Below are positions 1-42,474 of a stretch of DNA of 42,474 bases, piece by piece (the first letter of the stretch is position 1; each line of letters begins with the position of its first letter). The position numbers and the translations under genes are program-made. Origin of the DNA: Rathayibacter tritici (GTDB lineage: Bacteria; Actinomycetota; Actinomycetes; Actinomycetales; Microbacteriaceae); the NCBI RefSeq assembly GCF_002932875.1, contig NZ_PSWS01000069.1, positions 1 through 42,474 on the forward strand, written 5' to 3'. The notes under the pieces are model-generated. The model worked only from the letters and a program-made list of their open reading frames with translations. It made no database searches and was not told where the DNA came from.

Positions 1-19
1 CTCCTGCCCCTCCGGCGCA

Positions 20-109
20 CACCCCACCACTGAGGGGACCCTGAACCGTGGAGGGAGCCCGGAACGGCGGGTTGCCTTGGCGGTTCAGGGTTCCCTCAGT
101 GGTGGGGTG
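20..109. repeat. Long inverted repeat downstream of pth (palindromic family A, copy 1)
   Basis: Bases 20-48 and 81-109 are reverse complements at 28 of 29 positions, and the one mismatch would be a G-U pair in RNA. They enclose a 32-base loop. The element starts about 12 bases beyond the pth stop codon, so it can act as its terminator. Bases 32-60 match bases 36913-36941 downstream of hrpA at 25 of 29 positions, and both copies end in the word GGGTTCCCTC. It is therefore a dispersed repeat and not only a local hairpin. Confidence 0.8.
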
Positions 110-121
110 GGCGCGGGTGGG

Positions 122-706
122 TCAGGAGAGGGTGTGGTATTTGAGCTGGGCGGCCGTGAGGCCGGAGGTGGCGATGAGTTCGACGGCGTCCGCGGCGTCG
201 GACACCAGGATCGGGAGAGCCTCGCGCTCGGGTGCGGCGAAGTCCCGAAGCACGAAGTCGGCGGCCTGCTGGCGGCCCGGCGGGCGGCCGATGCCGACCC
301 GCACGCGCAAGAACTCGGCTCCCCCGGTCGCGGCGAGGATGTCGCGGATACCGTTGTGCCCCCCGTGTCCGCCGCCCTGCTTCAGCCGCAGGGTGTCGAA
401 CGGGATGTCGAGCTCGTCGTGCACGACGATCAGGTTCGACGAGTCGATCGAGAAGAAGTCGAGCAGCTGCGCCGTCGGCCCGCCCGAAAGGTTCATGAAA
501 CTGTTGGGCTTACCGAGCACGAGCTTCGGTCCCCCGGGGCGGAGAAAGCCTTCGGCGACGACGGCATTCGCGCGGTTGTGCCGGCGGAACGACCCGCCGA
601 TCCGCGTCGCGAGCTCATCGAGCACCATCTGGCCGACATTGTGCCGGTTGCGTGCGTACTGCGCGCCCGGGTTGCCCAGTCCGACGACCAGCCAGGTGTC
701 ACCCAT
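122..706 (-). CDS. pth: Peptidyl-tRNA hydrolase
   Basis: A cytoplasmic enzyme that releases tRNA from peptidyl-tRNA that has dropped off the ribosome. The 194-residue product has normal Pth length. The conserved residues are all visible: Asn12 in GLGNPG, the catalytic His22 in NRHNVG, Asn68 and Asn72 in KPNSFMNLSG, Asp97 in HDELDIP and Asn118 in GGHNGIRD. The ATG at 706 has an AGAGG-type ribosome binding site six to seven bases upstream. It follows rplY in the same direction, 93 bases away and separated by a strong hairpin, which is the usual actinobacterial rplY-pth arrangement. An inverted repeat follows the stop codon. Confidence 0.97.
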   Translation of the reverse strand: MGDTWLVVGLGNPGAQYARNRHNVGQMVLDELATRIGGSFRRHNRANAVVAEGFLRPGGPKLVLGKPNSFMNLSGGPTAQLLDFFSIDSSNLIVVHDELDIPFDTLRLKQGGGHGGHNGIRDILAATGGAEFLRVRVGIGRPPGRQQAADFVLRDFAAPEREALPILVSDAADAVELIATSGLTAAQLKYHTLS

Positions 707-23733: not shown

Positions 23734-25098
23734 ATGGCAGATCGCGAATACGGCTTCAAGACGCGTGCGATCCACGCGGGCAACATCCCCGACGCGGTGA
23801 CGGGCGCCCGCGCCCTGCCGATCTACCAGACGAGCGCGTTCGTCTTCGACGACACCGCCGACGCGGCCGCACGCTTCGCGCTGCAGAAGTACGGCAATGT
23901 CTACTCGCGCCTGTCGAACCCCACCGTCGCCTCCTTCGAGGAGCGGGTCGCGAGCCTCGAGGGCGGCCTTGGCGCCGTCGCGACCGCCTCCGGACTCTCG
24001 GCACAGTTCATCACCTTCGCGGCGCTGGTGGGCGCGGGCGACCACGTCGTCTCCTCCGCCAACCTCTACGGCGGCTCGATCACCCAGCTCGACGTGACGC
24101 TGCGGCGCTTCGGAGTGGACACGACCTTCGTGCGCTCCAGCGAGCCGGCCGACTACGCGGCGGCGATCACCGAGAAGACGAAGGTGCTCTATGCCGAGAC
24201 GATCGCCAACCCCTCCGGGGAGATCGCCGACATCGAGGGCCTCGCCGCGGTCGCGCACGCCGCCGGCATTCCGCTGATCATCGACTCGACGGTCGCCACG
24301 CCCTACCTCGTCCGACCGATCGAGTGGGGCGCCGACATCGTCATCCATTCGGCCACCAAGTTCCTCGGCGGACACGGCACCACGCTCGGCGGCGTCGTTG
24401 TCGAATCGGGGCGCTTCCACTACTCCCGGGAGAAGTTCCCGCTGCTGCACGATCCGGTCGCGTCCTACGGCGACCTGTCCTGGGACGGCAACTTCGGCGA
24501 GTACGGCTTCCTCACGCGCCTCCGGGCCGAGCAACTGCGTGACATCGGCCCGGTGCTCGCCCCGCACTCCGCGTTTCTGCTCGCACAGGGCGTCGAGACG
24601 CTGCCGTACCGGATCCAGGCGCACGTCGACAACACGCGCCGCGTCGCCGAGTGGCTCGACGCCGACCCGCGGATCGACGCCGTCTACTGGGCTGGCCTCC
24701 CCGCGCACCCGCATTACGGCCGTGCGCAGAAGTACCTGCCGAAGGGTCCGGGCTCGGTCTTCAGCTTCGTGGTGAAGGGCGGTCGCGCCGTCGGCCAGAC
24801 CTTCATCGAGTCGGTCGACCTCGCCAGCCACCTCGCGAACATCGGCGACGCGAAGACGCTGGTCATTCACCCCGCCTCGACGACGCACGCGCAGCTCACC
24901 GAGGAGCAGCTGCTGCACGCGGGCGTCCTCCCCGGCCTCGTCCGTCTCTCCGTGGGTATCGAGGACGCGGACGACATCGTCTACGACCTCGACCAGGCGC
25001 TGACCCGCGCCGTCGAGAAGCACGGCACCCCCGATGCTCCGACGGAGCTGCCGGAGGACACCACCACGACCCTGCACACCCCGGCCGTGGAGGTCTGA
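23734..25098 (+). CDS. metY: O-acetylhomoserine sulfhydrylase (aminocarboxypropyltransferase)
   Basis: PLP enzyme of the Cys/Met metabolism family that makes homocysteine from O-acetylhomoserine and sulfide. The 454-residue protein has the long MetY-type insertion that separates it from MetB/MetC. It shows the PLP phosphate-binding segment ATASGLSAQF, the stacking Tyr region SSANLYGGSITQL, the Asp in IPLIIDSTVATPYL, and the Schiff-base Lys in VIHSATKFLGGHGT. The C-terminus carries the family's LVRLSVGIEDADDIVYDL. The first 50 codons of the longer frame are unrelated. A CoA-binding protein gene follows two bases later, a recurrent pairing in actinobacteria. Confidence 0.96.
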   Translation: MADREYGFKTRAIHAGNIPDAVTGARALPIYQTSAFVFDDTADAAARFALQKYGNVYSRLSNPTVASFEERVASLEGGLGAVATASGLSAQFITFAALVGAGDHVVSSANLYGGSITQLDVTLRRFGVDTTFVRSSEPADYAAAITEKTKVLYAETIANPSGEIADIEGLAAVAHAAGIPLIIDSTVATPYLVRPIEWGADIVIHSATKFLGGHGTTLGGVVVESGRFHYSREKFPLLHDPVASYGDLSWDGNFGEYGFLTRLRAEQLRDIGPVLAPHSAFLLAQGVETLPYRIQAHVDNTRRVAEWLDADPRIDAVYWAGLPAHPHYGRAQKYLPKGPGSVFSFVVKGGRAVGQTFIESVDLASHLANIGDAKTLVIHPASTTHAQLTEEQLLHAGVLPGLVRLSVGIEDADDIVYDLDQALTRAVEKHGTPDAPTELPEDTTTTLHTPAVEV

Positions 25099-25100
25099 GC

Positions 25101-25670
25101 ATGAGCACCACCGACACCGTCGTCCAGCTGTCCAACGGGCTCAGCTGCTCCGTCCCACCCGATTCACCTCTCGCGACGATGCTGCATTCGCAGCGCACCT
25201 GGATCGGCCCCGACGCGCGCACCCGCCTCGACATCCTCCGCCGCGCGAAGACCGTGGCCATCGTGGGCGCCTCACCGAACCCGGCCCGCTCCTCCTTCTT
25301 CGTGGCGACCTACCTGCAGCAGTCGAGCGACTACGAGCTGTACTTCGTGAACCCGAACGCCACCGAGATCCTCGGGCAGCCGGTCTACCGCAGCCTGGCC
25401 GAGCTCCCGGTCGTCCCCGACATCGTCGACGTGTTCCGCAGGGCGAGCGACATCCCGGCGGTGATTGACGACGTACTGGCCGTCGGCGCTCCCACGGTCT
25501 GGGTACAGCTGGGCATCTGGAACCAGGAGGCGGCCGAGTACGGCGAGTCGAAGGGCCTGACCGTCGTGATGGACCGCTGCATCAAGGTCGAACACGCCCG
25601 CTTCCACGGCGGACTGCACCTGCTCGGCTTCGACACCGGGCAGATCTCGGCGCGCAAGACGCTGCGCTGA
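25101..25670 (+). CDS. CoA-binding domain protein (YccU-like)
   Basis: A 189-residue single-domain Rossmann protein. It has the nucleotide-binding strand-turn KTVAIVGASPNPARSSFFVATYL (about residues 48-70), the beta-strand FVNPNATEILGQPVYRSLAELP, the segment DIVDVFRRASDIPAVIDDVLAVG, and the conserved ending WVQLGIWNQEAA and MDRCIKVEHARF. Relatives bind CoA or an adenine nucleotide, and some may act in acylation control. It follows metY by two bases with GGAGG eight bases upstream, so a role in methionine or sulfur metabolism is likely but inferred. Confidence 0.9.
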   Translation: MSTTDTVVQLSNGLSCSVPPDSPLATMLHSQRTWIGPDARTRLDILRRAKTVAIVGASPNPARSSFFVATYLQQSSDYELYFVNPNATEILGQPVYRSLAELPVVPDIVDVFRRASDIPAVIDDVLAVGAPTVWVQLGIWNQEAAEYGESKGLTVVMDRCIKVEHARFHGGLHLLGFDTGQISARKTLR

Positions 25671-26184
25671 GCCGGTCCTGCGCGAGATGCCACTTACGCG
25701 CGCCTTTCGCGGCGTGTCGTCCGCACAAGTGGCATCTCGCGGCGGGGATGTTGCCCTCCACGGTGACGAGCTGGCGGAGGGTGTGGCGGATCTCCACGAG
25801 GCCGGCCGCTCGGGCATCACCCGGTCGATCGCTGCGGGCGGGTCGCGCGTCGCCTCCCCTGCAGAGGGGCCCGAGTGGCGAGGGCCCTGGAACGGTCGTC
25901 GTCCGGGTGCCCTCGGCTGGAGTTCCGCCAGCCAGCACGTCTGAGCGACGCGCCGACAACCCGGGCGTGTCGCCCTTGTGCGCAGTGTCGCTCGGTTCGG
26001 ACCCGGCCGCCTCCCCCGCGCGACGGATCCCCCTCCGCGTTCCGTGGAGGCTCTCTGGACACTGGATCCCAAGCGGGCCCGGCGGCGCCGGAGCAGGAGT
26101 AGGCCTGAAGGACACGGGAGACCCACTCCCCGATCGCGACAACGACGTCCGGCCGCTCGCGGCCATGAAGAGGTGCACGAAACG
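25671..26184. other. Intergenic region with a palindromic element, upstream of the peptidoglycan-binding pair
   Basis: These 514 bases hold the 61-bp palindromic element at 25681-25741 and presumably the promoter of the secreted pair. I looked for a c-di-AMP (ydaO) riboswitch, often found before actinobacterial wall hydrolases, and could not find its conserved blocks. No open frame is convincing. The sequence contains several short GC-rich hairpins but no tract I can assign. Confidence 0.5.
25681..25741. repeat. 61-bp palindromic element (family B), intergenic copy
   Basis: Perfect 15-base terminal inverted repeats at 25681-25695 (CGCGAGATGCCACTT) and 25727-25741 enclose a 31-base core. A copy of the same total length lies inside hrpA at 34294-34354, with identical terminal repeats and a core similar in the opposite orientation (shared GCGGCGTGTCG). 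It starts ten bases after the stop codon of the CoA-binding gene. Confidence 0.9.
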
Positions 26185-27216
26185 ATGAGACAGTTCACCA
26201 CCACCGCATCCACCACCGCACCCACCACCGCACCCGGCCCGCGATGGCCCCGGGGCCGCCTCCTGGTCGCCGGAGTCGCCTGTGGCGCTCTCGCCTTCGG
26301 GTCGCTGGCCACGGCGCCACTCGCCGTCGCAGCCCCCGCGCAGATCTCGGCGGTGTCCGTCACGGCCGCCGCCTGGCCCGTCGTCGCCCAGGGCGAGAAC
26401 AGCGCCAACGTCCGTACCCTCCAGCACCTGCTGAACGCCGCAGGCCAGTCGGTCGACGCGGACGGCGTGTTCGGCTCCGGTACCGCCGCCGCGGTCACCG
26501 CGTTCCAGAGTGCCCGGGGGCTCTCGGCCGATGGCATCGTCGGTCAGCAGACCTGGTCGGCGCTGATCACGACCGACTCCTCCGGCGACTCCGGCGAAAC
26601 CGTCACCGCTCTGCAGGTGCAGCTGAACAAGACCGGCGCTGGGCTCAGCGTCGACGGCGAGTTCGGAGCTGCGACGCTGGCCGCGGTGAAGGGCTTCCAA
26701 TCCGCGGCCGGCCTCACGGTCGACGGGGTCGTCGGCCCGCAGACATGGCAGTCGCTCGTCGGCTCCGGTTCCGGCTCGACGCCCGACCCGGGCCAGCCCG
26801 GCGAGACGTTCGCCACCCTGAGCGACGAGCAGCTCTCCAACGTGCGCACGATCATCGCCGAGGGCAAGACCGCTGGCGTCCCCGAATACGGCTGGGTCAT
26901 CGCGATCGCGACGGCGATGCAGGAGTCGCGCCTGCGCAACCTCTCCGGCGGCGATCGCGACTCCGTCGGACTGTTCCAGCAGCGTCCCTCCTCCGGCTGG
27001 GGCACCGCCGCCGAGCTGATCGACCCCGTCTCCGCGTCGCGCGCCTTCTACGGAGCCGCGAACAGCCCCACCAGCAACTCCGGCCTGCTCGACGTGCCCG
27101 GCTGGGAGTCGCTGTCGGTCACCGTTGCGGCGCAGGCCGTGCAGAAATCCGGCGTGCCGGACGCCTACGCGCAGTGGGAGACCCTGGCCCGCGAGGCCGT
27201 CGAGAGCGAGGGATGA
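26185..27216 (+). CDS. Secreted protein with two peptidoglycan-binding domains and a lysozyme-like domain
   Basis: A 343-residue exported protein. A signal peptide (Arg residues at 20-25, hydrophobic 27-50, AVAAPA cut region) is followed by two PG_binding_1 domains (about 70-130 and 138-192, each ending DGIVG/DGVVG...TW). A Ser/Pro/Gly linker and a C-terminal domain with IAIATAMQESRLRNL and DSVGLFQQRPSSGWGT follow; this resembles transglycosylase/lysozyme-like domains common in actinobacteria, with Glu247 the likely catalytic acid. Start ATG at 26185 after GAGG; earlier in-frame starts lack a signal-peptide rationale. The next gene overlaps or abuts it, so the two are probably made together and act on the wall. 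Confidence 0.85.
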   Translation: MRQFTTTASTTAPTTAPGPRWPRGRLLVAGVACGALAFGSLATAPLAVAAPAQISAVSVTAAAWPVVAQGENSANVRTLQHLLNAAGQSVDADGVFGSGTAAAVTAFQSARGLSADGIVGQQTWSALITTDSSGDSGETVTALQVQLNKTGAGLSVDGEFGAATLAAVKGFQSAAGLTVDGVVGPQTWQSLVGSGSGSTPDPGQPGETFATLSDEQLSNVRTIIAEGKTAGVPEYGWVIAIATAMQESRLRNLSGGDRDSVGLFQQRPSSGWGTAAELIDPVSASRAFYGAANSPTSNSGLLDVPGWESLSVTVAAQAVQKSGVPDAYAQWETLAREAVESEG

Positions 27217-27221
27217 GGATC

Positions 27222-28250
27222 ATGACCACCGACACCGAGACCACCACCATCGAGACCGAGGGCAGCGCCCGGCCGCAGACAGCCCGCTCCCGCATCCTCG
27301 CGGTCATCACCGCCGTCCTGCTCGCCGTCGGCGTCACCGTCGGCGGGGCCACCAGTGCCCAGGCAGCCGACTGGCCCGTGCTCTCCTCCGGATCCAGCGG
27401 TGAGGACGTGACCACGGCGCAGTACCTCCTCCGTGGCTCCGGCCAGTCGCTCGCCGTAGACGGGGCCTTCGGCTCCGGCACGGCGGGGGCCGTCACCGCC
27501 TTCCAGTCGGCCAAGGGCCTTGCCGCCGACGGTGTGATCGGCGAGGCGACCTGGGGTGCGCTCACCGTCACCGTCCGCAGCGGCTCCACCGGCGACGCGG
27601 TCAGCGCGGTGCAGACCCAGCTGAACGCGAACGGCGCCTCCCTCGCGGTCGACGGCGTCTTCGGCGCCGGGACCGACTCTGCGGTGACCGGCTTCCAGAG
27701 CGGAGCCGGTCTGACGGCGGACGGCATCGTCGGACCCGCCACCTGGAAGGCTCTGATCGCCGGGACCGGCGGCGGAGGGGGCACCACTCCCCCGCCCAGC
27801 GGCGACTCCGCAGCCACAGCGCAGGCCATCCTCGACAATCCGGGCATCGAGCTCTACGAGCTGGGCGCCGACTCCGGCGCAGACGCGGCCTCGACCTCGC
27901 TCGTCAACATCCGTGACACCGCCGAGGGGAAGCCGGCCAAGACCAGCTCCGGCGGTGATGCGGGAGTCACCGAGGTGGCTCTGGACCCGGCCATGCTGAA
28001 CGGGCTGCTCCGCCTGAACACGGAGTACGGCTTCGACCTCCGCGTCACCTCGATCGCGGGTGAGGATCACAGCAGCACCTCCCGCCACTACACCGGCCAC
28101 GCGGTCGACATCGACCGGATCAACGGCGTGACCGTGCTGAATGGCGCCGACCACCAGGCAGTGCAGGACGCCTGCGCCGCCCTGGGTGCGACACTTACGC
28201 TCGGCCCGGGCGACCCCGACCACGACAACCACGTGCACTGCGAGTGGTGA
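27222..28250 (+). CDS. Secreted protein with two peptidoglycan-binding domains and an M15-like peptidase domain
   Basis: A 342-residue exported protein with a signal peptide (hydrophobic residues 25-47, cut near SAQA-AD), two PG_binding_1 domains (about 56-112 and 117-175), a Gly-rich linker and a C-terminal zinc peptidase domain. The M15 pattern SxHxxGxAxD is present at 287-296 (His289 and Asp296 as ligands), with a second His site in HDNHVHCEW at the very end. This predicts a D,D- or L,D-carboxypeptidase-like enzyme acting on peptidoglycan stems. The ATG at 27222 has GAGGG nine bases upstream; the ATG at 27213 would overlap the previous stop as ATGA. The wall-binding halves resemble those of the preceding gene, implying duplication. 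Confidence 0.87.
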   Translation: MTTDTETTTIETEGSARPQTARSRILAVITAVLLAVGVTVGGATSAQAADWPVLSSGSSGEDVTTAQYLLRGSGQSLAVDGAFGSGTAGAVTAFQSAKGLAADGVIGEATWGALTVTVRSGSTGDAVSAVQTQLNANGASLAVDGVFGAGTDSAVTGFQSGAGLTADGIVGPATWKALIAGTGGGGGTTPPPSGDSAATAQAILDNPGIELYELGADSGADAASTSLVNIRDTAEGKPAKTSSGGDAGVTEVALDPAMLNGLLRLNTEYGFDLRVTSIAGEDHSSTSRHYTGHAVDIDRINGVTVLNGADHQAVQDACAALGATLTLGPGDPDHDNHVHCEW

Positions 28251-28270
28251 CCGCGGCGACACGCTGAGGA

Positions 28271-28299
28271 GGGCGGGCATCCGAGAGGGTGCCCGCCCG
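28271..28299 (+). terminator. Terminator hairpin after the peptidoglycan enzyme pair
   Basis: GGGCGGGCA and TGCCCGCCC arms with extra inner pairing around a short loop, about 20 bases past the stop codon. No clear U tract. Confidence 0.55.
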
Positions 28300-28320
28300 T
28301 CCGCCGTCCCGGGACGGGCG

Positions 28321-28326
28321 TACGCT
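28321..28326 (+). promoter_or_regulatory. Leaderless -10 hexamer of sdaA
   Basis: TACGCT ends six bases before the ATG at 28333. Confidence 0.45.
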
Positions 28327-28332
28327 CGGTGG

Positions 28333-29712
28333 ATGAGCGCCTACGTCTCCGTCCTCGACCTGTTCAGCGTGGGGATCGGCCCGTCCAGCTCGCACACCGT
28401 CGGGCCGATGCGCGCGGCCCTCGCCCTCGCTGAGCGGATCCGTGACGCCGGCCTCCTCGGCCGCGTGAGCCGCGTGGTCTGCACCCTCTACGGCTCCCTC
28501 GGTTCCACGGGGATCGGCCACGGCACTCCGGACGCCGTGGTCGCCGGGCTCGCCGGCTTGGACCCCGAGACGTGCGATCCGGCGCTGGTGCGCGGTGCCT
28601 GGCAGCGCCTCGACGCCGAAGGAGCGATCCTCCTGGCCGGCCAGCAGCGCCTCGCGATGACGCGGGACGACGTCGCCTTCGAGCCCCGCACTCGACTGCC
28701 GGAGCACCCGAACGCGCTGACGTTCAGCGTCTGGGTCGGCGAGGACGCCCTGCCGGTGTGGGAGCAGACCTACTACTCGATCGGCGGTGGCTTCATCCGC
28801 CGAGCGGGCGAGCACGCCGAGCTGGCGGCCCTGGCTCCGCACCCCTACCCCTTCGTCTCGGGGCTCGACCTGCTTGCGATCTGCGACCGGACCCGCTCGA
28901 GCATCGCCGAGATCGCCGCCGCGAACGAGCGCGCACTGCACCCCGGGGTCGACGTCGACGCCCGCCTCGACGCGATCTGGGACGCGATGGCCGCCTGCGT
29001 CGAGCACGGCCTGGCGACCGACGGCGTCCTGCCCGGTGGCCTCGGGGTGCGCCGCCGCGCATCGGTCCTCCGCGAGCGGCTCGAGGCCTTCGAGGAGGAC
29101 CCGCTCGACCGCGCCCGCGCGACCTCGGTGGAGTGGCTGCACGCCTTCGCGCTCGCGGTGAACGAGGAGAACGCCGCGGGCGGGCGCGTGGTGACGGCTC
29201 CGACGAACGGAGCCGCGGGGATCATCCCCGCCGTCGCCCACTACTACCTGCGGTTTGTGCCGGGCGCCGATCGCGCGGGCCTGCGCCGCTTCCTCCTCAC
29301 CGCCACCGCGATCGGCTCGCTCTGCAAGACGAACGCGTCGATCTCAGGTGCGGAGGCGGGCTGCCAGGGCGAGGTCGGCTCGGCCTGTGCGATGGCCGCC
29401 GGGGCACTCTGCGCGGTGCTCGGTGGCACTCCTGGGCAGGTCGAGAACGCGGCCGAGATCGCGATGGAGCATCACCTCGGCCTCACCTGCGATCCGGTCG
29501 GCGGACTCGTGCAGATCCCCTGCATCGAGCGGAACGCGATCGCCTCCTCCACCGCGGTGAGCGCCGCCCGCCTTGCGCTGCACGGCGACGGCGATCACCG
29601 CGTCTCCCTCGACGCCGTGATCGAGACAATGCGTCAGACCGGCATCGACATGTCCTCGAAATACAAGGAGACGAGCGAGGGCGGTCTGGCGGTGAACGTC
29701 ATCGAGTGCTGA
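28333..29712 (+). CDS. sdaA: L-serine ammonia-lyase, iron-sulfur dependent
   Basis: Deaminates L-serine to pyruvate using a 4Fe-4S cluster. This is the single-chain form: the 459-residue protein has the beta-domain signature [13 protein letters not shown] near the N-terminus and [13 protein letters not shown]. The alpha domain follows, with [18 protein letters not shown] and the cluster cysteines in [50 protein letters not shown]. The end ...GLAVNVIEC carries the conserved terminal Cys of the family. It appears leaderless and stands alone between the wall-enzyme terminator and the rhodanese gene. Confidence 0.96.
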
Positions 29713-29799
29713 GGCGCGCGGGCGGCGGTACCTCGACGCGAGACGGCGCGAACATGAACCCGCATGACGCGCAGGGGCACGCATGTCGGTGGTGCCGCC

Positions 29800-29805
29800 T
29801 AGCGT
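29800..29805 (+). promoter_or_regulatory. Leaderless -10 hexamer of the sulfurtransferase gene
   Basis: TAGCGT ends seven bases before the GTG at 29813. This supports the GTG over the in-frame upstream start at 29783. Confidence 0.5.
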
Positions 29806-29812
29806 GGACGGC

Positions 29813-30700
29813 GTGAGCACCTCCTCCGCCCCGTATCTCGCCCGGCCGATCGTTTCGACCCAGTGGCTCGCCGACCAGCTCGGCCGTGAGCACCTCGTCG
29901 TGGTCGATGCGAGCGTCCTGCTCGTGCCCGGCTTCGACGGCCGCCTCGGCTACCTCAGCGGCGATGAGCAGTACCTCCTCGAGGGGCACGTCCCCGGCGC
30001 CGTCTTCGGCGACGTGCTCGCGCAGCTGTCCGACTCCGAGGCATCCCTCCCCTTCACGCGCCTCGACCCCGAGCGGTTCGCGGCCGCCACCGCAGCCCTC
30101 GGCATCGACGACGACTCGGTGGTCGTCGTCTACGACTCCGCGGTGGGCCAGTGGGCCTCGCGCCTGTGGTGGCTGCTGCGCGCGGCCGGGCACGATGCGG
30201 TCGCGGTGCTCGACGGGGGCCTCTCGGCCTGGCGTCGCGAGGAGCGCCCGATCGAGACCGGGCATGTCGAGCCCGCAGCGAGCGGCGGGATCACGGTCCG
30301 TGAGGAGCGCCCGCTGTGGATCGATAAGGCCGGCGTCGAGCGCGTCGTCCGCGGCGAGGCACCGGGGGCCCTGGTCTGCGCACTGCCGCCGAAGGAGTTC
30401 ACCGGCGAGGAGGGGCGGCGCCCGCGCCTCGGGCACCTGCCGGGTTCGCGCAACGTCCCAGCCGGGCGCCTGGTCAATCGCGCGGACAACACTCTCCTGC
30501 CGCCGGAGCGGCTGCGGTCGCTCTTCGGCGAGAGCCTCCAGGCCGAGCGGATCGTTCTCTACTGCGCGGGCGGGATCGCGGCCACCGCCGACGCTCTCGC
30601 GCTCGCGGTGCTCGGGGTCGACACGGCGGTGGTCTACGACGGCTCGCTCAACGAGTGGGCGGCCGATCCCGAGGCGCCGCTCGTGGTCACGGCCGCGTGA
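29813..30700 (+). CDS. Sulfurtransferase with two rhodanese domains
   Basis: Thiosulfate or 3-mercaptopyruvate sulfurtransferase. The 295-residue protein has an inactive N-terminal rhodanese domain (about 8-150, [21 protein letters not shown] ... [21 protein letters not shown]) and an active C-terminal domain with [14 protein letters not shown] and the catalytic loop [13 protein letters not shown], with Cys251 as the persulfide carrier. The loop CAGGIAA fits neither the classical mercaptopyruvate (CGSGVTA) nor thiosulfate (CRKGVTA) consensus exactly, so the donor is open. It is convergent with the next gene, with a 14-base overlap of the two 3' ends. Confidence 0.9.
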
Positions 30701-32531
30701 TGAGCTCCTCCGGGAGCCGAGTGGTCGGCAGGGCGCAGACGAAGGCCTCGCAGGAGTAAGCGGTCGGCAGGTCCTCCCGGGAGGTCCTCCCCTCGAACAG
30801 TCCGAAGCCCGCGTGCGCCCACTCCCGCGCGCCCTCGTCCGAGACGCCGACGAGGACCCCGAAACCGGCCGACCGCGCCCCGCGTACCGCCTCCGCGGCT
30901 CCGGGACCGACGACCACCAGCTGCCGCACCGGACGCGCGAGCCGCGACGCCAGCGCGAGTACGGCACCGAAACCCATCGGTTGCCGGAGTGCACCGGGCG
31001 CGATCGCGGCGACCACCGCCTCCGCCGCCTCCCGGTAGCGCTGGAACCCGGTGAGAAGGTACAGCTCGTGCGCCGCGTCCGCGGTCGCCGAGAGCCCGGA
31101 GGGGTAAGCGCCCTCCGAGGGATCCGCCGCGAGCTGCAGACCGCGCGCAGTCAGCACCGGGTCGCCTCCGCCCGGGAGCGCAAACGGCAGCGGGCCCTCG
31201 GCCGCGTCGAGCGCGCCGTCGATCAGGGTGCGCGCGGCGACCGCGAAGCGCGGCCGACCCTCGGCGAGCGCGAGCTCGAGGAAACCGCCGGCGAGCATCC
31301 CCACGTCCTCCAGCGCTGGGCGGGCGGCCGAGACCGTGCCGTCGAGGGACGCGCGAGCCACGACGCGCCTGTCGGCCATGTGCCGCTGCACCACGGCGTG
31401 GGCGGCGCGGCGGGCCGCCTCGATCCACTCCTCGCGCCCCACCATCCGCCCGGCGCGGGCGAGCGCCCGGATCGCCAGGCCATTCCAGCCGGTAACGATC
31501 TTCTCGTCGAGAGCCGGAGGCGCGAGCCGCGAGCGCTCCTCGGCCAGGTAGTAGCCGCCCTCCGAGCGCTGCCCGTCGACGACGCTCTCCGAGTCCTGGG
31601 CCGACGCGAATCCGCCGCCCGGCCGCTCGAGGGTGCTCAGGAGGAAGGCGGCGATCCCTTCCGCGATCGTGGTCAGCTCGTCGACCCGGGCGTCGGATCG
31701 CCCGAGCAGAACCGCCGCGACGTCGAGCAGCTGCGCATTGTCGTAGAGCATCCGCTCGTAGTGCGGGTCGCTCCAGTCGGCCCGAGTCGCGTAGCGGAAG
31801 AAGCCGCCGTCGCGATCGCGGAGCGCCGACGCGGCGAGCGCGAGCAGCGTGCGTTCGGCGAGCGCCGCTCCCGAGGCTCGCGAGGCCAAAAAGGCGAGCA
31901 CCGGGGCGACCGGGAACTTCGGGGCGCCGCCGAAGCCGCCGTGCACGAGGTCCTCCTCCGCCGCGAGCGCATCCACTGCGGCGTCCAGCGCGGCGTCGTC
32001 TGGAAGGCCGGAGTCGCTCGGCAACGCCGCGGTCGCCTCGCGCAGTGCCGCGGCGAGTCCGCCAGCTGTCGCTTGCACCTCCTCGCGCCGCAGCCGCCAC
32101 GCCTCCGAGACCGCCTCGAGCACATCGGAGAAGGCGGGCACGCCGCCGACGGCCCGCGGAGGGAAGTAGGTCCCGGCGAAGAAGGTCTCGCCGGCGGGGG
32201 TCGCGAAAACGGTCAGCGGCCAGCCCAGCTGGCGGGTGAAGGCGCTCGCGGCAGTCAGGTAGGCGGTGTCGACGTCGGGATGCTCCTCCCGGTCGACCTT
32301 CACCGCGACGACGTCGGCGTTCAGGCGCGCGGCGAGCACCGGATCCGAGAACGACTCCCGCGCCATCACATGGCACCAGTGGCAGGTGGAGTAACCGATC
32401 GAGATCAGCACCGGGACGTCTCGGCGGACCGCCTCGGCGAACGCCTCCTCGCCCCAGGGGAACCAGTCGACCGGATTGTCCGCGTGCGAGCGGAGGTAGG
32501 GGCTGACACTGGAGCGCAGACGTTCGGCCAT
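30687..32531 (-). CDS. YyaL/SSP411-type protein: thioredoxin-fold domain plus six-hairpin glycosidase-like domain (DUF255)
   Basis: A 614-residue cytoplasmic protein of the DUF255 family. The N-terminal thioredoxin-like domain begins [27 protein letters not shown] and has a CxxC site, Cys50 and Cys53, in [14 protein letters not shown]. The rest is an alpha/alpha toroid like N-acylglucosamine 2-epimerases ([51 protein letters not shown]). The biochemical role is unresolved. The ATG at 32531 has TAGCGT seven bases upstream; the longer frame adds ten unrelated residues. It overlaps the convergent sulfurtransferase gene by 14 bases. Confidence 0.93.
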
Positions 32532-32538
32532 GCGTTCC

Positions 32539-32544
32539 ACGCTA
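32539..32544 (-). promoter_or_regulatory. Leaderless -10 hexamer of the DUF255 gene
   Basis: TAGCGT on the minus strand ends seven bases before the ATG at 32531. Confidence 0.5.
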
Positions 32545-32608
32545 GACGTGGGGTATGCCACAGGTCAGGGGCTTGCCGGGACCAACGGTCGCCGCGGGCT
32601 CTCGTCGC

Positions 32609-32860
32609 TCAGCGCTCGAAGAACCAGCCCGTCGGCCGCTCCGTGCCGCGGACGACGGTGCCGCCTCCGCCGCCTCCGCCGCTCCCGCCGCGACGGCCGA
32701 GGGCCAGGTAGGCGAGGCTTCCGACGAACGGGGCGATCACGATGAACGCCACCCAGGCGACCTTCGCGACCTTCGAGAGCCGCGGATTCGACACCACTCC
32801 CTGAATCGCGAACAGCAGCAGCACGATGTTCAGCACGACCAGCAGGGACTGCGGATTCAT
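32609..32860 (-). CDS. Small PLDc_N (phospholipase D nuclease N-terminal-like) membrane protein
   Basis: An 83-residue protein with two membrane segments (about residues 4-24 and 34-54), a NPRLSKVAKVAWVAFIVIAPFVGSLAYLALGR pattern typical of PLDc_N domains, then a glycine-rich tail and WFFER. The ATG at 32860 has GGAG six bases upstream; the longer frame to 33001 is unlikely because it would read through the hrpA promoter region. Family members are membrane-anchoring modules of unknown function when found alone. It is divergent from hrpA. Confidence 0.8.
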   Translation of the reverse strand: MNPQSLLVVLNIVLLLFAIQGVVSNPRLSKVAKVAWVAFIVIAPFVGSLAYLALGRRGGSGGGGGGGTVVRGTERPTGWFFER

Positions 32861-32966
32861 CGGGTGCTCCACGGGATTGTGCGCCGCGGTCGACCGGCGC
32901 CGAAGCGCCCGACCGGGCAGGACGTCCCACGACGTTTCGCGGGACAGGGCATTGTCGCACGCGGCG

Positions 32967-32972
32967 TAGGAT
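32967..32972 (+). promoter_or_regulatory. -10 hexamer of hrpA, near-leaderless
   Basis: TAGGAT ends nine bases before the ATG at 32982, and the gap contains GGAGGG. The gene could be leaderless or carry a very short leader that keeps the Shine-Dalgarno site. Confidence 0.4.
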
Positions 32973-32981
32973 GGAGGGCTC

Positions 32982-35900
32982 ATGTCAGACGTGCTCAGCA
33001 TCCGCTACCCGCCCGAACTGCCCGTGTCGGCGCGGCGCGAGGACATTGCCGCGGCAATCCGCGACCACCAGGTGGTCATCGTCGCCGGAGCCACCGGATC
33101 CGGCAAGACGACCCAGCTGCCCAAGATCTGCCTCGAGCTCGGGCGCGAGAGCATCGCGCACACCCAGCCGCGCCGCATCGCGGCCCGCACCATCGCCGAG
33201 CGTATCGCGGAGGAACTCGACGACGAGGTCGGCGGGCTGGTCGGCTATCAGGTCCGGTTCACCGATAAGGCGTCCGCGTCGACCCGGATCAAGCTGATGA
33301 CGGACGGCATCCTGCTCAATGAGATGAACCACGACCGGATGCTCAGCCGGTACGACACGATCATCATCGATGAGGCGCACGAGCGCAGCCTGAACATCGA
33401 CTTCCTCCTGGGCTACCTGCACCGCCTGCTGCCGCAACGACCCGACCTCAAGGTGATCATCACCTCCGCGACGATCGACCCGCAGAGCTTCGCGGCTCAC
33501 TTCGCCGACGCCGCGGGCGAGCCGGCTCCGATCATCGAGGTGTCCGGCCGCACCTACCCGGTCGAGGTCCGCTACCGGCCGCTGGTCGCCGAGGAGCCGG
33601 AGGAGGACGACGACACCGACGTCCCGGACGCGACGAGCGGCAGCCGCGACCTGATGACCGGCATCACTGACGCCCTGGCCGAACTGGCCCGCGAGGATCC
33701 GGGCGACGTGCTGGTGTTCCTCTCGGGCGAGAACGAGATCCGCGACGCCGAGGACGCGATCCGCGGGCGGAACCTGCCCGGCACGGAGGTGCTCCCCCTC
33801 TACGGCCGGCTCTCCGCCGCCGATCAGCACCGCGTCTTCGAGAAGGGGCGCACCCCTGGCGTCCGGCGCCGCGTCGTCCTCGCGACCAACGTGGCGGAGA
33901 CAAGCCTCACGGTCCCCGGGATCCGCTACGTGATCGACGGCGGCACGGCCCGTATCTCCCGTTACAGCGCGCGATCGAAGGTGCAGCGGCTACCGATCGA
34001 GGCCGTCTCGCAGGCGTCGGCGAATCAGCGCTCGGGCCGCTCGGGTCGCACCAGCGCGGGCATCGCGATCCGCCTCTACTCCGAGGAGGACTACCTCCGC
34101 CGCCCCGAGTACACCGACCCCGAGATCCTGCGCACGGGCCTGGCCGCCGTCATCCTGCAGATGATCTCGCTCGGCCTCGGCGACATCGCCTCGTTCCCCT
34201 TCCTCACGCCTCCCGACTCCCGCGGTATCAAGGACGGCCTCGACCTGCTCACGGAACTCGGCGCCCTCCGCACCCCCACCTCCCCCTCCCTTCCGCGAGA
34301 TGCCACTTCGGTACGCGACACGCCGCAGAAGGCGTACCCAAGTGGCATCTCGCGGAAGGGGGACGAGGCGGCGGCGCCGCAGCTCACGCGGATCGGGCGG
34401 GATCTCGCGCGGCTCCCGATCGATCCGCGCTTCGGGCGGATGGTCATCGAGTCGCGCCGGCACGGCGTCAGCCGCGAGGTGATGGCGATCGTCGCGGGTC
34501 TCACGATCCAGGACGTCCGCGAGCGCCCGCTCGAGCGCCGAGCGCAGGCCGACCAGCAGCACGCGCGCTTCGTCGATCCGACCAGCGACTTCCTCACCCT
34601 CCTGAACCTCTGGAACTACCTTGAGGAGAAGCAGGACGAGCTCTCCTCCAGCGCCTTCCGCCGCCTGTGCAAGGCCGAGTACCTCAACTACCTGCGCGTG
34701 CGCGAGTGGCAGGACGTGTTCCGTCAGCTGCGCCAGCTCGCGCGTCCGCTCAAGCTCGAGCTCGGTGAGCCGAAGGTCGACCCCGACGGGATCCACCGGA
34801 GCCTGTTGGCCGGCCTGCTCTCGCACCTGGGCATCAAGGACACCACTTCGCAGCAGGCGCAGCGTGCGGCGAAGAACCGCGAGCGCCAGAACGTGCAGTA
34901 CCTCGGCGCCCGCAACGCGAAGTTCTCGATCTTCCCCGGGAGCGCCCTGGCCAAGAAGCTGCCCGACGCGGTGATGAGCGCCGAGCTGGTCGAGACGAGC
35001 CGCCTCTTCGCGCGCTCGAACGCGGCGATCGACCCGGCCTGGGCTGAGGCGATCGCCGGTGACCTGGTGAAGCGGCAGTTCAGCGAGCCGCACTGGGAGA
35101 AGTCGCAGGGCGCGGCCGTCGCCTACGAGAAGGTCACGCTCTACGGAGTGCCGATCATCGCGCGCCGCCGCGTCCAGTTCTCGCGAATCGACGCCTCCTA
35201 CGCCCGGGAGCTGTTCATCCGACACGCCCTCGTCGACGGCGAATGGGAGTCACGGCACGCGTTCGACAAGAAGAACCGGGCCCTGCGCGCCGAACTCGAG
35301 CGCCTCGAGGAGCGCACCCGCCGCCGCGACCTGCTCGTCGACGACGAGGCGGTCTTCGACTTCTACGACCGCCGCCTCCCGCGCGACATCACCTCCGTGC
35401 GCTCCTTCGACTCCTGGTGGCGCACTACTCAGCACGACGAGCCCGACCTGCTGACGATGACGCAGGAGACTCTGCTGCCCGAGGACGCGGAGCAGGTCGA
35501 TGAGACCGCGTTCCCGACCCAGTGGCGCCAGGCCGACCAGCGCCTACGGCTCTCGTACCGGTTCGAGCCGGGGACGGAGGAGGACGGAGTGACGGTGCAC
35601 GTGCCGCTCGCGCTGCTGCCGCGCGTCACTCCGCTCGGCTTCGACTGGCTGGTGCCGGGGCTCCGCGCCGAGCTGGTGACCGCGATGATCAAGGCGCTGC
35701 CCAAGCACCTGCGCCGGAATGTTGTGCCCGCGAACGACTGGGCGCGGAAGCTCACCGCCGCCCTCCCGCACGACGTGCCGAATCCGCCGACGGAGTCGTT
35801 CGCCGCGACCCTCGCCGGAGCGATCCGCCGCGAGGCCGGAGTGGTAGTGCAGCCCGAGGACTTCGACCTCGAGCGGATCCCCTCGCACCTGCGCGTCACC

Positions 35901-36896
35901 TTCGCGGTCGCCGACGAGCGGGGGCGCACGATCGCCGCCGGCAAGGAGCTCGCCCCGCTGGCCGAACGGCTGCGCGGCCGGGTGCGCGACGAGGTCGCGC
36001 GCGTCGTCGAGGCCCGCGTGCCCGACGCGCTCGAGCGCCGGGGACTGAAGACGTGGGACATGCCGGAGCTGCCCCGCGTCACCGACACCCGGCAGGGCGG
36101 AAACACGATCCGCGCCTACCCGGCCCTGATCGACGACGGCGACTCGGTGTCCATCCGCCTGCTCGCCACCGCCGAGGACCAGGCGCGCGAGCACCCTCGA
36201 GGCGTCCGCCGCCTCCTCCTGCTCGCGACGCCGAGCCCCGTCGCCTACGTGCAGCAGCACCTCACCTCGAACGAGAAGCTCGTGCTCGCGCAGAGCCCGT
36301 ACCAGAACACCACAGCGCTCTTCAGCGACTGCTTGCTCGCCTGCGTCGACGCGGTGCTCTGGCGGATGAAGCCCGACGGCATGCTCTTCCTGCGCGCCGA
36401 GTTCGATGCCGTGCGCGACCGCGTCTCGGCGAGCGTGATGGATGCGATGTTCGAGACCGTGAAGACCGTCACTACGATCCTGACCACCGCCCGCGGCGTC
36501 GAGAAGGCGCTCAAGGCCTCGACGAGCATGGCGCTCCTGCCTGCGCTCACCGACGCGCGCGAGCAGCTCTCGGGCCTGGTCTACCCCGGCTTCGTCTCGG
36601 CGACCGGAGTGGAGCGGCTGCGGCACCTCCCGCGCTACCTCGCGGCGATCACCGAGCGCTTCGGCAAGATCGCCGAGAACGTGGGCCGCGACCGCATCTG
36701 GCTGAACGAGGTGCAGGCCGCGCAGGAGCTCTACCGCTCCGCCGGCGGCGGCGTACCGCTGCCCGCGCACGCCCCTGAGCGGATCGAGCGCGCCCGCTGG
36801 CTCCTGGAGGAGCTGCGGGTGAGTTTCTTCGCGCAGTCGCTCGGCACCGCCGAGAGCGCCTCTCTCCAACGCATCCGCAAAGTCCTGACCCCCTGA
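32982..36896 (+). CDS. hrpA: ATP-dependent RNA helicase HrpA, with a palindromic element inserted in frame
   Basis: A 1304-residue DEAH helicase, full length for the family. It has Walker A GATGSGKTTQLPK (about residues 36-48), DEAH in TIIIDEAHERSLN (about 126-138), motif III TSATIDPQ, and the C-terminal helicase motifs ATNVAETSLTVPGI and QRSGRSGRTSAGI. Winged-helix/ratchet and OB-fold regions follow (LTRIGRDLARLPIDPR; NVQYLGARNAKFSIFPGS), then the long DUF3418 C-terminus. HrpA acts on structured mRNA and stalled ribosomes. Between LTELGAL and QLTRIGRDL the frame contains about 30 extra residues encoded by a 61-bp palindromic repeat (residues about 438-458) with a copy elsewhere in the window. 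The frame remains open through it. Confidence 0.95.
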   Translation: MSDVLSIRYPPELPVSARREDIAAAIRDHQVVIVAGATGSGKTTQLPKICLELGRESIAHTQPRRIAARTIAERIAEELDDEVGGLVGYQVRFTDKASASTRIKLMTDGILLNEMNHDRMLSRYDTIIIDEAHERSLNIDFLLGYLHRLLPQRPDLKVIITSATIDPQSFAAHFADAAGEPAPIIEVSGRTYPVEVRYRPLVAEEPEEDDDTDVPDATSGSRDLMTGITDALAELAREDPGDVLVFLSGENEIRDAEDAIRGRNLPGTEVLPLYGRLSAADQHRVFEKGRTPGVRRRVVLATNVAETSLTVPGIRYVIDGGTARISRYSARSKVQRLPIEAVSQASANQRSGRSGRTSAGIAIRLYSEEDYLRRPEYTDPEILRTGLAAVILQMISLGLGDIASFPFLTPPDSRGIKDGLDLLTELGALRTPTSPSLPRDATSVRDTPQKAYPSGISRKGDEAAAPQLTRIGRDLARLPIDPRFGRMVIESRRHGVSREVMAIVAGLTIQDVRERPLERRAQADQQHARFVDPTSDFLTLLNLWNYLEEKQDELSSSAFRRLCKAEYLNYLRVREWQDVFRQLRQLARPLKLELGEPKVDPDGIHRSLLAGLLSHLGIKDTTSQQAQRAAKNRERQNVQYLGARNAKFSIFPGSALAKKLPDAVMSAELVETSRLFARSNAAIDPAWAEAIAGDLVKRQFSEPHWEKSQGAAVAYEKVTLYGVPIIARRRVQFSRIDASYARELFIRHALVDGEWESRHAFDKKNRALRAELERLEERTRRRDLLVDDEAVFDFYDRRLPRDITSVRSFDSWWRTTQHDEPDLLTMTQETLLPEDAEQVDETAFPTQWRQADQRLRLSYRFEPGTEEDGVTVHVPLALLPRVTPLGFDWLVPGLRAELVTAMIKALPKHLRRNVVPANDWARKLTAALPHDVPNPPTESFAATLAGAIRREAGVVVQPEDFDLERIPSHLRVTFAVADERGRTIAAGKELAPLAERLRGRVRDEVARVVEARVPDALERRGLKTWDMPELPRVTDTRQGGNTIRAYPALIDDGDSVSIRLLATAEDQAREHPRGVRRLLLLATPSPVAYVQQHLTSNEKLVLAQSPYQNTTALFSDCLLACVDAVLWRMKPDGMLFLRAEFDAVRDRVSASVMDAMFETVKTVTTILTTARGVEKALKASTSMALLPALTDAREQLSGLVYPGFVSATGVERLRHLPRYLAAITERFGKIAENVGRDRIWLNEVQAAQELYRSAGGGVPLPAHAPERIERARWLLEELRVSFFAQSLGTAESASLQRIRKVLTP
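34294..34354. repeat. 61-bp palindromic element (family B) inside hrpA
   Basis: The terminal inverted repeats 34294-34308 and 34340-34354 are identical to those of the copy at 25681-25741. In this copy the arms extend to 21 bases (34288-34308 and 34340-34360), and the core has an inner 7-base stem (34310-34316, 34332-34338). Total length is the same 61 bases. The core matches the other copy in the opposite orientation (CGACACGCCGC here, GCGGCGTGTCG there). It is translated as part of HrpA. Confidence 0.92.
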
Positions 36897-36911: not shown

Positions 36912-36979
36912 CGAGGGAACCCCGACCCGTCGAGGGAGCCCCCTGAAGCAGGCTCCCTCGACCGCCCGGGGTTCCCTCG
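36912..36979. repeat. Nested inverted repeat after hrpA (palindromic family A, copy 2)
   Basis: Outer 13-base perfect arms (36912-36924, 36967-36979) surround inner 12-base perfect arms (36929-36940, 36951-36962) with a 10-base loop. It starts 15 bases after the hrpA stop and ends 20 bases before the MFS start, so it can terminate hrpA transcription. It is related to the element at 20-109. Confidence 0.85.
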
Positions 36980-38818: not shown

Positions 38819-38840
38819 GCCCACGTGTCAGCATGGGGGC

Positions 38841-41922: not shown

Positions 41923-42474
41923 ATCGTTCCCGATCTCATCGTCCTCAATGGCGGCTCCAGCTCGGGCAAGACCACGATCGCCCGCTGCCTGCAGACGCTC
42001 CTCCCCGACCCCTGGCTCCGCTTCTCCATCGACGATCTGATCGACGCGCTTCCGCCGAACCTCGACGGTCGGGACGATGCCGGAGTGTCCTACGCAGAGG
42101 ACGGAGAGGTCGAGCTCGGCGAGGACTTCCGTCAGCTCGAGGCCGCGTGGCTTGCCGGTCTCGTCGCCGTGGTCCGCTCCGGAACCCAGATCGTGCTTGA
42201 CGACGTCTTCCTGGATTCGAGCGTCTCGCAAGCACGGCTGCGCAGCCATCTGGAGGGACTGACCGTGTTCTGGGTCGGCGTGCGCTGCCGCGCCGACGTA
42301 GCGACCGCCCGAGAGGCGACCCGCCGCGACCGAACCCCCGGCATGGCCGCCCACCAGGCCGAGCGGGTCCACCTCGGCGTCCACTACAACCTCCAGGTCC
42401 ACTCCGACGACCACTCCCCCCTCACCTGCGCCCGCCGCATAGCGGCGGGCGCAGGTGAGGGGGGAGTGGTCGTC
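41923..42474 (+). CDS. Chloramphenicol phosphotransferase-like P-loop kinase, partial, non-canonical start
   Basis: The frame encodes VPDLIVLNGGSSSGKTTIAR with a Walker A loop, then FSIDDLIDALPP (the position of the catalytic Asp of CPT), LDDVFLDSS, and VGVRCRADVATAREATRRDRT and HYNLQVHSDDHSP. This is the layout of the CPT family, which includes a chloramphenicol-resistance kinase and many proteins of unknown substrate. There is no ATG, GTG or TTG before the P-loop. GGAAGGA at 41909-41915 stands seven bases before an ATC at 41923, so ATC is either a rare start codon or a mutated ATG. The frame is still open at the window end, where the last 69 bases are an inverted repeat. Confidence 0.75.
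   Translation, partial: MVPDLIVLNGGSSSGKTTIARCLQTLLPDPWLRFSIDDLIDALPPNLDGRDDAGVSYAEDGEVELGEDFRQLEAAWLAGLVAVVRSGTQIVLDDVFLDSSVSQARLRSHLEGLTVFWVGVRCRADVATAREATRRDRTPGMAAHQAERVHLGVHYNLQVHSDDHSPLTCARRIAAGAGEGGVVV
42406..42474. repeat. Perfect 33-bp inverted repeat ending exactly at the window edge
   Basis: Arms 42406-42438 and 42442-42474 are perfect reverse complements separated by the three bases ATA. The left arm encodes what looks like genuine CPT protein (SDDHSPLTCARR), so the right arm is a copy of coding sequence turned round. It may be a natural palindrome or a fold-back artefact at a contig end. Confidence 0.9.

What the first reader, a model, noticed from the sequence alone, without database searches (positions are those of the whole stretch)
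34288..34360. Mobile-looking 61-bp palindrome translated inside HrpA
The hrpA frame contains a palindromic element with 15-base terminal inverted repeats identical to those of an intergenic element at 25681-25741. Both copies are exactly 61 bases and share an 11-base asymmetric core word in opposite orientation, so they are a repeat family and not chance. In hrpA it sits between the ELGAL and LTRIGRDL segments, at a surface-loop-like position between helicase modules, and keeps the frame open. This parallels the Rickettsia palindromic elements inserted in protein genes, which I know of only for other phyla. The insert is 61 bases, not a multiple of three, so flanking bases or a target duplication must complete the frame.
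Basis: partly seen in the sequence, partly recalled or inferred. Interest (0 to 1): 0.8.

Follow-up and report, generated by a model that had tools for sequence, protein, structure and literature searches.

The report
Repeat hairpin living inside HrpA gene
A short hairpin-shaped DNA repeat that normally sits just after genes in Rathayibacter bacteria landed long ago inside the gene for the RNA helicase HrpA, leaves its reading frame open there, and has been kept in most of the Rathayibacter species examined.

Summary
Window 34288-34360 is a palindrome inside the open hrpA frame; it shares 15-bp ends and an 11-bp core with the intergenic copy at 25681-25741. Both belong to a dispersed family: up to 85 exact-ended copies per Rathayibacter genome, 0 in five of 15. 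Copies mostly lie just after stop codons (median 20 bp); hrpA is the only clear internal gene insertion among 118 copies placed.

Eleven of 15 Rathayibacter hrpA genes carry the element at one site and frame. A 17-gene tree nests two non-carriers among carriers, so an old gain with later loss is simplest. The insert lies in a length-variable linker modelled as disordered. Within hrpA, box and core change no faster at third than at first or second codon positions, and third positions change less than elsewhere in the gene: constraint or conversion at DNA level, not on the peptide.

It works like a REP or Rickettsia palindromic element, but no RAYT transposase was found (0 of 15 genomes); the mobilising enzyme is unknown. 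New member of a known kind.

The parts
32982..36896 (+). hrpA, ATP-dependent RNA helicase, 1304 aa, hosts the element
   Evidence: open frame; PDB sequence matches and fold match of a 700-residue model to E. coli HrpA
34288..34360 (+). full palindrome in hrpA (73 bp); RNA of 34283-34365 folds at -61.8 kcal/mol
34293..34355 (+). 63-bp family unit = hrpA codons 438-458 (PRDATSVRDTPQKAYPSGISR)
   Evidence: nhmmer score 62.5; codon table
34294..34308 (+). left 15-bp arm (box)
34316..34326 (+). 11-bp asymmetric core CGACACGCCGC
   Evidence: GACACGCCG shared by the family
34340..34354 (+). right 15-bp arm (box)
25681..25741 (-). intergenic family copy, 10 bp after the stop codon of the gene 25101-25670 (+)
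   Evidence: orthologous copies in G011, G015, G013, G001, G002
25709..25719 (-). core word CGACACGCCGC of the intergenic copy, opposite orientation
25101..25670 (+). gene whose 3' end carries the intergenic copy
   Evidence: home-made gene call

Best explanation
The palindrome is one copy of a dispersed, REP/MITE-like hairpin element of Rathayibacter. The element is a ~63-bp unit (13-15 bp inverted box, variable but mostly complementary inner arms, asymmetric GACACGCCG core) plus pyrimidine/purine outer arms. It carries no gene and must be copied in trans by an enzyme not yet found. Copies survive almost only just behind stop codons, where the hairpin probably serves as, or is tolerated as, a 3'-end or terminator-like structure. 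Before the main Rathayibacter clade diversified, one copy entered hrpA in a linker next to the winged-helix region, where HrpA tolerates length changes. It is 21 codons long and open in that frame, so the gene stayed intact. It has since been inherited, lost in G004 and G014, and partly rewritten. Its box and core are held at DNA level (by recognition in trans or by conversion from dispersed copies), while the encoded arm residues drift freely. Shown: family, positions, same-site presence in 11 of 15 hrpA genes, open frame, codon-position pattern. Inferred: transposition, 3'-end function, single gain with loss, DNA-level conversion or recognition, translation.
For: Family: 140 palindromes in 119 loci plus the window; exact-ended copies per genome from 0 to 85 in 15 Rathayibacter genomes; 13 of 398 Microbacteriaceae genomes have any. 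Boxes occur in pairs: 244 pairs against 10 singles at up to 1 mismatch, overlapping loci counted more than once. hrpA: 11 of 15 genes carry it at one site and frame; the 17-gene tree nests the non-carriers G004 and G014 with carrier G003 (support 100) inside carriers. Gain elsewhere: at window ~38825 four sister genomes have the element where the others have a short spacer. Context: 118 copies: convergent 49, tandem 48, divergent 8, in called genes 8 (5 of these are hrpA), edge 5; 131 of 146 distances to a stop codon are 44 bp or less, median 20. Codon test in all 11 carriers: box and core third-position changes 4 in 11 codons against 1.21 per codon in the rest (degeneracy-matched resampling p 0.004); first 4 and second 6 in the same 11 codons; arms 2.25 third and 4.38 first plus second per codon. 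The G011 hrpA left arm ATGACG is found in 6 of 37 dispersed G011 copies and in 0 of 102 fetched from G001, G002 and G003. Loop: linkers; residues 434-462 pLDDT below 50.
Against: No transposase: Y1/RAYT family 0 of 15 Rathayibacter and 0 of 7 other box-bearing genomes; no longer element ending in the box in the DNA held, which is a part of each genome. Many sites are shared between species (a set biased to element-bearing loci), so recent movement is not seen. No target duplication seen. The hrpA box is not preserved in every carrier: G015 has one change, and G005, G010, G012 and G017 have more. The synonymous-site test limited to 7 genomes is circular, because they were chosen for a (nearly) intact box; on 11 carriers that version gives p 0.17 (all degenerate codons) and 0.12 (4-fold), though 0.004 for invariant A/T-ending codons (one codon). 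Absence in both G004 and G014 needs two losses on the 17-gene tree, or a loss plus exchange; two gains are not excluded.
Confidence: 0.82

Rival explanations
1. The dispersed hairpins are not mobile. They are the genus's transcription terminators or 3'-end signals that share a sequence because one protein or nuclease recognises them, and the hrpA copy is a by-product.
For: Tight placement behind stop codons; the site at 25681 holds unrelated palindromes in several other species, as if some hairpin is favoured there; outer arms continue the stem in many copies.
Against: Sequence identity across copies and lineage-specific copy numbers, gain of a whole unit into a short tandem spacer at ~38825 and the unit inside hrpA are easiest to explain by copying of DNA. 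No T-tract terminator was called at either copy in 25000-36000.
Confidence: 0.12
2. The family is a classical REP family mobilised by a RAYT (Y1) transposase.
For: Hairpin shape, 3' intergenic bias and occasional intragenic copies match REPs described in PMC3733652.
Against: PF01797 0 of 15 Rathayibacter genomes, with 5 of 14 control genomes ringing, and 0 of 7 others. GTAG or CGTC tags were not searched for systematically; none stands out in the listing.
Confidence: 0.03
3. The insert is kept because its peptide is useful to HrpA.
For: Retained in 11 of 15 genes, always in frame; RDAT- and SGI-like residues are shared by most carriers.
Against: Arm residues change at first and second positions about as fast as at third positions; two nested species lack it; the region is modelled as disordered; linker length varies widely in the class.
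Confidence: 0.08
4. Chance: an ordinary GC-rich linker that happens to resemble an intergenic palindrome.
For: The linker is variable across HrpA proteins.
Against: nhmmer E 2e-17 for the window's hrpA copy against a model of 111 copies from the fetched loci (window not included, hrpA orthologue copies included).
Confidence: 0.01

Closest known systems
~75-nt palindromic repeat of Rathayibacter (Davis et al. 2018, PMC6113626; passages and section 7 read)
   Same: Same genus, palindrome of similar length, 15 to 99 copies per genome; very likely this family
   Different: The passages and section I read give no sequence, placement or gene insertion; identity is therefore not proven, and the genus has other palindrome families
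Rickettsia palindromic elements (RPE; seen through passages of the review PMC10969869 and section 15 of PMC3733652)
   Same: Short palindromic repeat inserted in frame in a protein gene
   Different: RPEs enter many genes; here one clear internal gene among 118 placed copies; ~63 bp plus outer arms instead of ~150 bp for the first RPEs; Actinomycetota instead of Alphaproteobacteria; sequences not compared
REP elements, GTAG and CGTC types (PMC3733652, passages and section 15)
   Same: Small hairpins next to the 3' ends of convergent or tandem genes; some inside DNA/RNA-processing genes, RNA helicases of O. terrae among them; the CGTC type also lacks a known transposase
   Different: No RAYT gene in 15 genomes; longer unit with box, arms and core
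Enterobacterial repeat units RU-1/RU-2/RU-3 (PMC2759123, abstract and outline; that they include the ERIC and YPAL repeats is recalled)
   Same: MITE-like repeats, mostly intergenic, some translated inside genes
   Different: 103-168 bp, other hosts; sequences not compared

Membership tests
Dispersed Rathayibacter palindrome family defined here | Paired CGAGATGNCACTT boxes 31 bp apart with GACACGCCG core | tested here: met
   for both window copies
RAYT-mobilised REP | Y1 (RAYT) transposase in the genome | tested here: not met
   PF01797 0 of 15
RAYT-mobilised REP | Hairpins next to 3' ends, convergent or tandem genes | tested here: met
Rickettsia palindromic element | In-frame insertion in a protein gene, reading frame kept | tested here: met
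Rickettsia palindromic element | Frequent insertion in many unrelated protein genes | tested here: not met
   8 of 118 copies in called genes, 5 of them hrpA; 2 of the other 3 only form C-terminal tails, the third (L062) is uncertain
Rickettsia palindromic element | Sequence homology to an RPE family | not tested
   no RPE sequence was compared
MITE | Terminal inverted repeats matching an autonomous element in the genome | tested here: inconclusive
MITE | Target-site duplication | tested here: inconclusive
   none visible by eye at the ~38825 filled/empty site
Davis 2018 ~75-nt Rathayibacter repeat | Same sequence | not testable with these tools

The most novel reading that the evidence does not exclude
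The hairpin in the hrpA message is not just tolerated: it is a built-in roadblock by which HrpA, a helicase solved on an E. coli disome (PDB 9gft title), senses and limits its own synthesis. That would explain why the box stem (hrpA hairpins of -40 to -62 kcal/mol in the five genomes folded) changes little at silent codon positions while the encoded arms drift.
Probability: 0.07. Interest if true: 0.82.

Novelty: new member of a known kind. Interest (0 to 1): 0.5.

Why it matters
Palindromic repeats translated inside protein genes are described in what I read mainly for Rickettsia, several Proteobacteria and O. terrae. This is a clear case in an actinobacterium, with an insertion placed on a tree, absence in two nested species, a codon-position signature suggesting that the DNA motif rather than the peptide is held, and a hint that dispersed copies rewrite the protein by conversion. 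It gives a tractable system to ask how hairpins without a RAYT move and why they gather behind stop codons.

Tried and rejected
RNA-strand bias in the arms: G-U 37 against A-C 46 of 888 arm pairs (704 Watson-Crick, 101 other), so no sign of selection on one RNA strand (copies were pre-filtered for the core word and 57-bp length). Orientation of the core: tandem 18 sense, 30 antisense; convergent 24 against 25: no clear polarity. Rfam at gathering scores: only one tRNA in the window. Plasmid and phage collections: no match to the family consensus; viral contigs: none. First structure model, 12 close homologues, was useless (mean pLDDT 38.9); the second, with 23, was usable (74.4). The idea that the box decayed in G010, G012 and G017 because the family is dead there was dropped: the 5 dispersed copies read from each mostly form another dialect (CACTCCGGTACGC). 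A core remnant in the G004 linker was considered but not tested. The hrpA-only tree gave weak and different branching, so I used the 17-gene tree. One search had a coordinate bug and was redone. One search match numbers are not copy counts, since one place can be listed on both strands and several lists stand at 80. The 118-copy placement used my own codon-usage gene caller, not curated annotation, and only exact-ended copies with the Rathayibacter core word from L001-L119, the window and three orthologous regions; copies of the other genera were dropped there and placed apart.

Literature: in searches no listed title or abstract concerns a palindrome in Rathayibacter hrpA (several lists show only the top of many hits). 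PMC2267715 was seen as passages; other papers not named in Closest known systems only as listings. The RPE paper PMC186582 was not held.

Full report
What is there. The window holds two copies of one palindrome. The copy in hrpA has identical 15-bp ends at 34294-34354, inside a 73-bp palindrome at 34288-34360. The intergenic copy spans 25681-25741, ten bases after a stop codon. Both share an 11-base asymmetric word, on opposite strands. The hrpA frame (32982-36896, 1304 aa) runs through the element without a stop. The RNA of the hrpA copy folds at -61.8 kcal/mol, below all 200 shuffles.

It is a family. With the window they hold 140 exact-ended palindromes, 132 of them 57 bp long from box to box. 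Most are from Rathayibacter with core GACACGCCG. Naasia, Arthrobacter and relatives, Actinotalea and Cryobacterium carry the same 13-bp boxes, some with another central base pair, and other inner arms. Exact-ended copies in 15 genomes of the genus: 85, 83, 81, 61, 38, 10, 5, 3, 2, 1 and five zeros. A looser DNA search finds relatives in all 15 (its numbers count some places twice). In the family sample 13 of 398 genomes have any exact-ended copy. Plasmids, phages and viral contigs gave none.

Where copies sit. I placed 118 distinct Rathayibacter-type copies with a home-made gene caller. 49 lie between convergent genes, 48 between tandem genes, 8 between divergent genes, 8 in called genes and 5 at edges. 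The distance to the neighbouring stop codon has a median of 20 bp, and 131 of 146 distances are 44 bp or less. Spacers are pyrimidine-rich and often pair with purines on the far side. Five of the eight in-gene copies are hrpA of five genomes, the only clear internal insertion. Two others form C-terminal tails, and one (L062) is uncertain. Naasia and Arthrobacter copies show the same 3' placement.

hrpA through the genus. Of 15 Rathayibacter hrpA genes (window plus 14 genomes; one further genome had no hit), 11 carry the element at the same site and in the same frame. G004, G014, G008 and G016 do not. On a tree of 17 neighbouring genes G008 and G016 are outside, G010 and G017 branch first inside, and G004 and G014 are nested with carrier G003 at full support (G012 was not in this tree). 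The simplest history is one gain at the base of the inner clade and absence in G004 and G014 by two losses or by one loss with exchange; two gains are not excluded. The intergenic copy at 25681 is narrower: in the orthologous regions examined it is found in G011, G015, G013, G001 and G002, and not in G003, G004, G005, G010, G014, G017, G008 or G016. A third site near 38825 is filled only in G015, G013, G001 and G002; the other genomes have short spacers.

DNA or protein. Over all 11 carriers I counted changes per codon position by parsimony on a tree written by hand (codon 442 dropped because of a gap). Box and core codons show 4 third-position changes, 4 first and 6 second in 11 codons. The rest of the gene shows 1.21 third-position changes and 0.26 first-plus-second changes per codon. 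Degeneracy-matched resampling gives p 0.004 for so few third-position changes. The arm codons change at all positions (2.25 third, 4.38 first plus second per codon). A coding sequence under protein selection shows the opposite pattern. A second test on 7 genomes gave stronger numbers (12 of 12 degenerate codons identical against 574 of 1096 outside the element; 4 of only 7 invariant A/T-ending codons in the gene lie in the element). It is biased, because those 7 were chosen for a nearly intact box; on all 11 carriers the identity versions gave p 0.17 and 0.12, and the A/T-ending version, resting on one codon, 0.004. Two processes can make this pattern: a factor that recognises the box, or conversion from dispersed copies. 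For conversion, the G011 hrpA copy carries the left arm ATGACG, which occurs in 6 of 37 dispersed G011 copies and 0 of 102 from three other genomes (the 102 are the copies fetched, about half of those in G001 and G002).

Place in the protein. The two halves of HrpA align to E. coli HrpA with the insert between query residues 433 and 461. In 18 class-wide HrpA proteins whose linker could be read (of 29 loci tried, 11 not found by my motif) this linker runs from a few residues to more than 50. A 700-residue model (mean pLDDT 74.4) gives 434-462 below 50, between helices 413-425 and 470-476. The model's best PDB match is E. coli HrpA with RNA, 6zww. That this is the wing of the winged-helix domain is my reading of the fold, recalled and not measured.

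Mechanism. Most likely a non-autonomous hairpin element copied in trans, with survivors concentrated behind stop codons where a hairpin does no harm or helps end transcripts. The enzyme is unknown: the RAYT family was not found in 15 Rathayibacter and 7 other genomes. In the DNA held, boxes hardly ever occur unpaired, so no longer element with these ends was seen. At site 25681 several other species carry unrelated palindromes, so hairpins may replace each other at terminator-like positions.

Against known things. A ~75-nt Rathayibacter palindrome with 15 to 99 copies was mentioned by Davis et al. 2018 (PMC6113626) and is very likely this family, though no sequence was seen. In-frame palindromes are known as RPEs and intragenic REPs, with RNA helicase genes of O. 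terrae among the hosts (PMC3733652 section 15; PMC10969869 passages). What is added here is the actinobacterial case, the history in hrpA and the codon-position evidence. I found no report of the hrpA insertion.

Noticed in passing
window 36912-36979: Another palindrome (CGAGGGAACCCCG...TCGAGGGAGCC) starts 15 bp after the hrpA stop; a copy follows hrpA in G011, and a relative lies in the G004 region.
   Followed up: partly
window 25681 orthologous site in L186-L189, L192-L199: The same gene end carries unrelated palindromes in several other Rathayibacter species (GGCTCGCAGGA..., GACGGGCCGGC..., AGGGTTGTCACTTTGTCGG...), as if terminator-like hairpins of different families replace each other.
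   Followed up: partly
window 1-128 and 42406-42474: Long palindromes begin exactly at the first and end exactly at the last base of the window; the latter has 33-bp arms and a 3-base loop. Possibly contig-end effects.
   Followed up: no
L270: Another actinomycete HrpA has a much longer charged repeat-like linker at the same place.
   Followed up: no
L008, L007, L102, L111 and related loci: The same 13-bp box, in some with a swapped central base pair, ends otherwise different palindromes in Naasia, Arthrobacter, Actinotalea and Cryobacterium, also mostly behind stop codons.
   Followed up: partly
G001, G002, G014 and G004 regions (L180-L185, L190-L193): Repeated GGGCGTATCGAGATCCAC / GGCTACTCGACCAGCATG units, another abundant palindromic repeat in the genus.
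   Followed up: no
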